From Chlorobiota bacterium (lineage in GTDB: Bacteria; Bacteroidota; Ignavibacteria; Tepidaquicellales; OLB5), in NCBI GenBank assembly GCA_022616535.1, contig JAKEEM010000012.1, forward strand, positions 1 to 57,041: a DNA stretch of 57,041 bases. The letters are read 5' to 3'. This document shows, in pieces, positions 16,520-57,041 of this stretch. Position 1 is the first letter of the stretch; each line of letters opens with the position of its first letter. A model generated the notes under the pieces. The model searched no databases. It was not told the origin of the DNA and saw only the letters and a program-made list of their open reading frames with translations. A program made the translations under genes and the position numbers.

Positions 16520-16593
16520 TGCCCCCGGAAGGATTCGAACCCTCGACCAACTGATTAAGAGTCAGCTGCTCTACCAACTGAGCTACAGAGGCA
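16520..16593 (-). tRNA. tRNA-Lys (anticodon CUU)
   Basis: A 74-base cloverleaf on the minus strand: acceptor TGCCTCT pairing with GGGGGCA (with wobbles), D arm GCTCAGTTGGTAGAGC, and anticodon arm GCTGA-CTCTTAA-TCAGT with anticodon CTT at 16559-16557. The T arm contains GGTTCGAATCC. CCA is not encoded. It decodes AAG. Confidence 0.95.
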
Positions 16594-55051: not shown

Positions 55052-56335
55052 ATGAATACTCTAAAATTATCCTTCGCATCATTAATTTTGGCTGCTATCT
55101 TTTATCCGTTTAAAACAATTGCTGAAAATTATGACTACAGTTCCTACTATGTAAATGATACAGATTTAACGATAGATAAAATCCAAACTGAGCTCTCCGA
55201 GGACGGCGAATGGATTAAAATTAACCCAAGCGAGATTGACCCCGAAAGCGTAACAGACGGCTCCGACGATATAGACGAGGATGTTAACACGGACTGGGTT
55301 TGGCGTCCCTACAATGTTGAACCGGCGTGGTCGCCTTACACCAACGGCTACTGGAAATACACCAATTGCGGCTGGATGTGGGTTTCATATTACCACTGGG
55401 GATGGAGGCCTTACCACTACGGACGCTGGTGGTGGTCGCCCGTTTACGGCTGGGTTTGGTCGCCGGGTTACGTTTGGGCGCCTGCATGGGTCGTATGGTT
55501 TTTCCATCCGAGTTACTGCGGGTGGTATCCCCTGCCCCCGAGAGCCTGCCGCTACAACTACCGCAGGTACTATTGCCATAACATTCGTTTCCGGGTGAAG
55601 CACTGGACTTTCTGCCCGACGTATAACTTTACGACAATTATTATCAACAATACTGTGATTGTGCCGCCGGAGCAAAATGTTATTATAGTAAAAGAAGCAG
55701 CGTTTGAGCCGGGTGTTGTTGTTGAAGGAAGCCGTGTTATTAACAACGGTCCTGAAGTTAAGATAATCGAGGAATCTGCGGGCCAAAAATTTACGCCCGA
55801 AAACGCTGACAAGTACAACAACATAAGCAGGGTCACCGATTCAAAACGTAACGATGTATACTCAAAGCGCGATGATACAAAAACAAAAGAAGATAAGCGT
55901 TATTATAACAACGAGACACGAAGCAATGAAAAATCACGCGGCGAAGAAAAATCACGCAGCGAAGATATAAACAAAAACCGCGAATCGAAGCAGGATAAAA
56001 CATACGAGAGCAGAGATTATGAAAAGCGAAACGAAAACAAAAGCTATGAATCAAGAGATTACGAAAAGAAATCAAATGATAACCAAAAGAGCAGAAATGA
56101 TAATTCGCAAAAACAGCGTGAATATAAGAAGGAGAATCAACAGGAAAAACGTCAGGAATATAAGCGCGAAGACAATAATCAGAACCGGAACAATGAAAAC
56201 CGTAGCAATGATAACAAGCGAAGCGGGGAAAAAGAATCACCACCACCGGAAAAGAAAAATGACAGCGATAACGGAAGCAGAAATAACGATTCTCAGAAAA
56301 ATGACAACGGCTCAAGAGGCAACGGAAAAAGATAA
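55052..56335 (+). CDS. DUF6600 Trp-rich exported protein with charged low-complexity tail
   Basis: 427 residues; signal peptide ([20 protein letters not shown]). Residues 45-175 are the DUF6600 Trp/Tyr/Pro-rich repeat: [72 protein letters not shown]. Residues 240-427 are an extremely polar Asn/Lys/Arg/Glu/Asp/Ser tract with the unit YESRDYEK twice. The family is predicted to be envelope-associated. A good ribosome-binding site (AAAGGAG) precedes the ATG, and a terminator follows. Function unknown. Confidence 0.88.
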
Positions 56336-56396: not shown

Positions 56397-56424
56397 AGGC
56401 GTTCAGAAATGGACGCCTTTTTTT
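56397..56424 (+). terminator. Terminator of the DUF6600 gene
   Basis: AGGCGTTC-AGAAAT-GGACGCCT followed by TTTTTTTATC, 62 bases after the stop. Confidence 0.85.
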
Positions 56425-56880
56425 ATCGCTGATTTCGGATTGCCGATTTAGGATTAACCTTATTAAAATTTGTCAGATTAATCAAATTTGTCAAATTCAT
56501 AAGATTCAACAACCCATATTTTTTGGCGAGGTGACCCGCCATAGGCGGGCAGGCTCTCACCACTACTTTTGTTTATTTACTATTTATTTTTTACTCTTTG
56601 ATATTTGATATTTATTTGTCATTTGAGCTTTGTCGTTTGACATTTTGCTTTTAAAAAATACCACCCAGGTGGATTTGTAACATCCCGCACATAAACTATG
56701 TACGGGATAGGTTTTGAAAGTGGGATTGTGACTCCTGCCTGCCTTGTGGGCGTACCTTGTGAGTTGGCAGCTATACTTGACTGTTGGAGACTCGCCCCGA
56801 TTGCCCGGGGGACAATAAATCATAAGCTTTGGAGCCATGCTGTCCGAAATAAATTCGGGACAAGCAACGGTTCTTCCAAA
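56425..56880. other. Non-coding, hairpin-rich stretch
   Basis: No credible gene. Simple-sequence text (several TTTGA/TTTAT words) at 56580-56640 is followed by small palindromes: CCAC-CCAG-GTGG (56664-56675), an imperfect ATCCCG...CGGGAT hairpin (about 56683-56708), CCCCG-ATTG-CCCGGGG (about 56796-56811) and GTCCGAA...TTCGGGAC (about 56850-56872). The density of hairpins and the change to GC-rich text suggest the edge of a mobile or repeated element leading into the structured RNA at 56884. Confidence 0.5.
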
Positions 56881-56883
56881 AAT

Positions 56884-57041
56884 CTCACGTTAGCTGGGTG
56901 TGAGTGAAACCCCGCCTGAGGCGGGCAGTCTTATACTTTAGAGTCGTCGCCTTAAGAGCCCTAAGCTTTCGCCCGCCGCCGGAATACCCCAATGCTGACG
57001 GAAAGTTTACTCTTAAGACCAAGCTTAGCCAGTTGTACAAA
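56884..57041 (+). ncRNA. Candidate structured RNA with pseudoknot (HEARO/omega-RNA-like), cut by window edge
   Basis: GC-rich, non-coding and full of exact complementarities. CTCAC (56884-56888) pairs with GTGAG (56900-56904), and CCCGCC-TGA-GGCGGG is at 56911-56925. CTTAAGAG (56951-56958) is an exact reverse complement of CTCTTAAG (57010-57017), and CTAAGCTT (56961-56968) of AAGCTTAG (57021-57028). The order a-b-a'-b' is that of a pseudoknot. The layout (5' hairpins, large pseudoknotted domain, sequence continuing straight to where an ORF could begin) resembles HEARO RNAs (Rfam RF02033), the guide RNAs of IscB in IS200/IS605-like elements. The family assignment is inference; the pairings are seen directly. 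Exact ends are unknown. Confidence 0.5.

What the first reader, a model, noticed from the sequence alone, without database searches (positions are those of the whole stretch)
56884..57041. Pseudoknotted RNA at the window edge, possibly the omega RNA of an unseen IscB system
Two pairs of exact 8-bp complements lie in the order a-b-a'-b' (56951/57010 and 56961/57021), plus a perfect 6-bp hairpin at 56911-56925 and a 5-bp stem at 56884-56904. None of this is expected by chance in a 160-base non-coding stretch. HEARO/omega RNAs are about this long, are pseudoknotted and sit directly upstream of the IscB gene. For IscB the guide comes from the 5' flank, so the sequence just left of about 56880 could be the natural guide.
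Basis: partly seen in the sequence, partly recalled or inferred. Interest (0 to 1): 0.82.

Follow-up and report, generated by a model that had tools for sequence, protein, structure and literature searches.

The report
Multicopy structured RNA gene, opposite strand
The folded RNA at the window's edge is real, but it lies on the opposite strand and is one of about 15 dispersed copies of a previously undescribed, roughly 460-letter non-coding RNA gene found so far in a single Ignavibacteria genome; it has nothing to do with an IscB gene-cutting system.

Summary
The window (contig C28 of an Ignavibacteria MAG) ends inside a repeat with about 15 copies in that genome. In seven aligned copies, 41 proposed pairs are 96% kept, 13 with two-sided changes (0/500 shuffles; slid controls at most 3). 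So a structured RNA is well supported. Helix a (56951-56958/57010-57017) covaries. Pseudoknot b keeps a ~4-bp core without covariation. The 6-bp hairpin is an insert present in only some copies.

The RNA is on the minus strand: folding favours minus; all 14 copies with this end carry a terminator-like stem and T-run there; 14 of 15 copies readable on the other side carry TTG-N20-TAnnTTTG, a Bacteroidota-type promoter, before a ~370-520-nt RNA.

It is not an IscB omega RNA: no Rfam hit, whereas the same scan finds HEARO (107 bits) beside a true IscB in a relative; no full copy or right part has an IscB ORF, and this genome has no IscB above cut-off.

No relative was found in 390 other genomes of the class, nor by pattern in GTDB and viral contigs or BLAST of phages and plasmids. 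Best reading: a lineage-specific, dispersed ncRNA gene family, spread like a non-autonomous mobile element; molecular function unproven.

The parts
56653..57041 (-). 3' part (about 389 nt) of one copy of the structured RNA; the 5' end, promoter and palindrome lie beyond 57041
   Evidence: Alignment with complete copies C24, C41, C70, C72, C48L and the C9L+C33 join; better folding on minus
56653..56672 (-). terminator-like end: CCACC-TG-GGTGG then TATTTTTT
   Evidence: A stem plus T-run of this form on the minus strand in all 14 copies that reach this end; single match in the window, 0.01 expected. Stem is short (4-5 bp)
56682..56708 (-). variable 3' hairpin; several other copies have CCGUC-UUCG-GACGG here
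56730..56734 (-). 3' arm (GAGTC on minus) of the long-range helix closing the inner domain
   Evidence: Pairs with 56941-56945; GACTC/GAGTC in most copies, GACC/GGTC in C72
56735..56770 (-). hairpin d: arms 56735-56739 and 56766-56770 (CTGCC/GGCAG), CCGCC/GGCGG in C41
56779..56783 (-). 3' arm (CAGTC on minus) of long-range helix B, partner 56926-56930
   Evidence: GACTG/CAGTC in A and B subfamilies, GATTG/CAATC in C72
56884..56904 (-). hairpin 1, stem CTCAC/GTGAG (CCTTG/CAAGG in C41, C70)
   Evidence: 3 pairs with two-sided change
   Evidence: Missing in C24, C48L, C9L, C72
56926..56950 (-). most conserved block; holds the 5' arms 56926-56930 (helix B) and 56941-56945 (long-range helix)
56951..57017 (-). 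helix a (56951-56958 with 57010-57017) and the domain it closes
   Evidence: 5 of 8 pairs with two-sided change
56961..57028 (-). pseudoknot b (56961-56968 with 57021-57028); shared core GCTT 56965-56968 / AAGC 57021-57024
   Evidence: 89% of cells paired, no two-sided change; core 96%; degenerate in C41

Best explanation
56653-57041 (minus strand) is the 3' part of one copy of a dispersed, stand-alone non-coding RNA gene. From 5' to 3' on the minus strand the unit is: a palindrome (CACCTCAT-N9-ATGAGGTG, exact in most copies, a candidate operator), a Bacteroidota-type promoter (TTG-N20-TAnnTTTG), a ~370-520-nt RNA with long-range helices and a likely pseudoknot, and a short terminator-like stem with a T-run. 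About 15 copies in three subfamilies lie in unrelated intergenic sites. Shown: copies, covariation, strand preference, conserved promoter-like and terminator-like signals. Inferred: that it is transcribed, that the palindrome binds a regulator, and that copies spread as a non-autonomous mobile element moved in trans by an enzyme not identified. How the RNA acts (mobility substrate or trans-acting regulator) is open; I think amplification as a mobile element is more likely (about 0.6 given the rest).
For: Copies. Covariation in 7 copies: 41 pairs, 96.4% kept, 13 two-sided, 0/500 shuffles, slid controls at most 3; 8-copy core likewise. Strand: consensus energy -162.8 (minus) vs -139.6 (plus) and better in each of 3 segments; minus has the better z-score in 6/6 RNAs; terminator-like end in 14/14 copies; TTG-N20-TAnnTTTG before the RNA in 14 of the 15 copies that reach that side, C62 being cut off, matching the published -7/-33 consensus (PMC7366714). 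Dispersal: different flanking genes; recA-linked region free of the element in related Ignavibacteria; no hit in 43 other genomes of the order and 390 of the class.
Against: No transcript data. All copies come from one MAG, so shuffles overstate independence. The terminator stem is short and the palindrome's regulator unknown. No exact empty site or target duplication was found and no mobilising enzyme is linked to the element. Folding z-scores of single copies are modest to strong (-1.3 to -5.5).
Confidence: 0.75

Rival explanations
1. It is a host-functional multicopy regulatory RNA (a regulon of similar RNA genes under one regulator), not a mobile element.
For: Promoter, palindrome, terminator and structure kept across subfamilies only 61-69% alike; palindrome found only at these loci among fetched sequence.
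Against: Absent from all other genomes searched; truncated and mosaic copies (C51, C24R, C72) and unrelated sites look like mobile repeats.
Confidence: 0.3
2. Omega RNA of an IscB (HEARO) or other RNA-guided nuclease system.
For: Multicopy, structured, non-coding; HEARO RNAs can occur without their ORF (general knowledge).
Against: No RF02033 hit although a true HEARO/IscB pair in a relative is found by the same tools; no IscB or TnpB in the genome; no IscB ORF next to complete copies or right parts. The HNH protein beside copy C17 matches PD-T4-1 and restriction families, not IscB.
Confidence: 0.02
3. ORF-less group I or group II intron, or an IStron.
For: Large structured RNA in many copies.
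Against: No Rfam intron hit on either strand at E up to 10; intergenic; own promoter-like and terminator-like ends; no reverse transcriptase in the genome.
Confidence: 0.03
4. Cis-regulatory leader or 3' UTR element of neighbouring genes.
For: The left-hand gene is co-oriented with the window's plus strand in 12 of 14 copies.
Against: The RNA is on the minus strand, so it is convergent with those genes; genes on the other side have mixed orientation and unrelated functions.
Confidence: 0.05

Closest known systems
HEARO / IscB omega RNA (Rfam RF02033; PMC9755519)
   Same: Large structured non-coding RNA, many dispersed copies
   Different: No RF02033 similarity, no IscB beside it, own promoter-like and terminator-like ends on the other strand
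Large ornate bacterial RNAs (OLE, ROOL, GOLLD; PMC12286853)
   Same: Several hundred nt, complex and pseudoknotted, no known protein partner for ROOL
   Different: No Rfam match; those RNAs are not described in that paper as ~15 dispersed copies per genome
Stem-loop-containing interspersed repeat families (PMC2267715) and REPINs (PMC3116915)
   Same: Dispersed non-coding repeats with conserved structure
   Different: Often simple stem-loops; here a ~460-nt multi-helix RNA gene with promoter-like and terminator-like ends

Membership tests
HEARO / IscB omega RNA | Match to covariance model RF02033 | tested here: not met
   No hit; positive control L180 107 bits
HEARO / IscB omega RNA | Adjacent IscB ORF (split RuvC, HNH) | tested here: not met
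   No IscB ORF beside complete copies or right parts; NF040563 best in own genome 65.7 bits vs cut-off 175. PF14239 was uninformative: its controls did not ring. The window's own right neighbour is unresolved
HEARO / IscB omega RNA | RNA-guided cleavage with a guide next to the RNA | not testable with these tools
   Needs an experiment
TnpB/IS200-IS605 omega RNA element | TnpB in the element or genome | tested here: not met
   PF07282: 0 in genome, controls ring
IS110 bridge RNA element | IS110 recombinase | tested here: not met
   PF01548: 0 in genome, controls ring
Group I/II intron | Rfam intron model match | tested here: not met
OLE, ROOL, GOLLD and other Rfam large RNAs | Rfam model match | tested here: not met
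Non-autonomous mobile repeat (MITE/REPIN-like) | Dispersed copies in unrelated sites | tested here: met
Non-autonomous mobile repeat (MITE/REPIN-like) | Empty sites, target duplication, cognate transposase | tested here: inconclusive
   recA-linked region is element-free in relatives but too diverged for an exact empty site; five Y1 transposase genes exist, none flanked by the element

The most novel reading that the evidence does not exclude
A bacterial SINE-like element: a complete promoter-RNA-terminator unit whose large folded RNA, or its DNA, is what gets copied around the genome under control of a palindromic operator.
Probability: 0.2. Interest if true: 0.85.

Novelty: new variant of a known kind. 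Interest (0 to 1): 0.55.

Why it matters
Large structured bacterial RNAs without known partners are few and mostly unexplained. One that exists as about 15 dispersed copies, each with promoter-like and terminator-like ends and, in most, an exact palindrome upstream, confined so far to one lineage, offers a natural set for mapping structure and for asking how an RNA gene multiplies in a bacterial genome. It also warns that covarying helices look alike on either strand: the reading direction has to be tested.

Tried and rejected
IscB/HEARO; TnpB, IS110, reverse transcriptase; Y1 transposases as cognate enzyme: element not found in their flanks. Pattern scans of GTDB contigs and IMG/VR, and BLAST of phages and plasmids: nothing. 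DNA search of relatives gave mainly short matches to AT-rich low-complexity stretches. I first took the plus strand as sense and linked the window to contig C33 (recA) by a 60-nt overlap; the C9L-C33 overlap is 101 nt, the overlap length seen elsewhere in this assembly, and gene order in a relative fits C9L, so that link was dropped. A right-half hairpin tested alone did not covary significantly (one search was the same test with a mis-set structure). Left ends of 60 further contigs gave no new copy. Integron attC arrays were considered and set aside on size and dispersal, not tested.

Full report
Observation. Two exact 8-bp stems in a-b-a'-b' order appear in 0.25% of dinucleotide shuffles of this stretch, yet about eight other places in the window also show them, so comparison was needed.

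What the stretch belongs to. A search of the window's own genome (2.89 Mb, 77 contigs, 98% complete) returned many partial and some full copies. Complete copies lie on C24, C41, C70 and C72; ten contig ends, the window's among them, stop within the left part, eleven within the right part, and C51 holds a fragment, which gives about 15 copies. Contig ends share exact 101-nt overlaps (C9L with C33, and several pairs with each other), so the window ends at 57041 because assembly stopped inside the repeat. What follows 57041 cannot be named: C33 overlaps it by only 60 nt and C67 by 37. Related records are titled Ignavibacteria.

RNA structure. In eight copies helix a has five pairs changed on both sides and hairpin 1 three, with no shuffle reaching the covariation score. 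In seven aligned RNAs the 41 named pairs are 96.4% kept, 13 with two-sided change, against at most 3 when partners are slid. This includes two long-range helices, GACTC/GAGTC (GACC/GGTC in C72) and GACTG/CAGTC (GATTG/CAATC in C72). Pseudoknot b is kept at 89% but shows no two-sided change. Because all copies come from one genome, shuffle counts are not probabilities.

Strand. Complementary helices cannot tell strand by themselves. Consensus folding is better on minus for each of three segments and for the whole RNA (-162.8 vs -139.6), and minus has the better z-score in six of six RNAs. On minus, all 14 copies that reach the left end show TCCACC (or a variant), two bases, GGTGG, then TATTTT or longer. 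On the other side 15 copies can be read (C13, C17, C20, C21, C24, C29, C30, C33, C41, C47, C62, C66, C67, C70, C72). Fourteen have TTG, 20 nt, then TAnnTTTG just before the RNA start; C62 is cut off before the TAnnTTTG. The published Bacteroides consensus is TAnnTTTG at -7 and TTTG near -33 (PMC7366714). The palindrome CACCTCAT-N9-ATGAGGTG is exact in nine of these fifteen (C13, C17, C20, C30, C33, C47, C62, C66, C72), and C21, C24, C29, C41, C67 and C70 carry imperfect versions. The resulting RNAs are 371-521 nt. A regulator and transcription are inferred.

Not IscB. Rfam gave no hit on either strand. In a same-family genome the IscB model NF040563 scores 355 bits and the same Rfam scan places HEARO at 107 bits beside it, so the tests work in this group. 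This genome's best NF040563 score is 65.7 bits, under the cut-off of 175. ORF calls around the complete copies and right parts show no IscB; one HNH protein 465 nt from copy C17 matches PD-T4-1 and restriction families.

Distribution and spread. The R1 model, built from the plus-strand alignment but searched on both strands, found 11 places in this genome and none in 14 other genomes of the family, 43 of the order or 390 of the class; exact patterns found nothing in GTDB or viral contigs. The element is absent from recA-linked regions of related Ignavibacteria. Flanking genes are unrelated; the left gene points at the element in 12 of 14 copies (two-sided binomial p 0.013, longest-ORF calls). 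I read this as recent spread within one lineage, by an enzyme not found; a host-functional multicopy RNA remains a serious rival.

Verdict. A real, structured, multicopy RNA gene, misread in strand and partner. The RNA family is well supported; its action is not known.

Noticed in passing
L180 (G009:C1) 1222-1439 and L181: Same-family Ignavibacteria genomes hold true IscB genes (355 and 296 bits), one with a HEARO RNA at 107 bits.
   Followed up: partly
L085 636-1802 (C17): 388-aa HNH protein near one copy, matching PD-T4-1 and phosphorothioate/type IV restriction families.
   Followed up: partly
L093-L097: Five Y1 (IS200/RAYT-like) transposase genes in the genome; the element is not in their flanks, they may serve the small palindromic inserts.
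   Followed up: partly
window 56519-56580: Another hairpin-forming repeat (GGCGAG...CTCTCACC) lies left of the element in several copies, followed by a T-rich simple-repeat tract.
   Followed up: no
window 56397-56425: Apparent terminator (AGGCGT...ACGCCT and T-run) of the gene 55052-56335, facing the RNA's 3' end.
   Followed up: no
L085, L086, L019, L083 right flanks: A second, related palindrome lies roughly 200 nt further from the RNA start in several copies.
   Followed up: no
L174 and L175 (left ends of C67 and C68): Two contigs start with the same unrelated repeat (ACCTCGACCAAATCTAAATTGG...).
   Followed up: no
window 16520-16592: A tRNA gene on the minus strand (Rfam).
   Followed up: no
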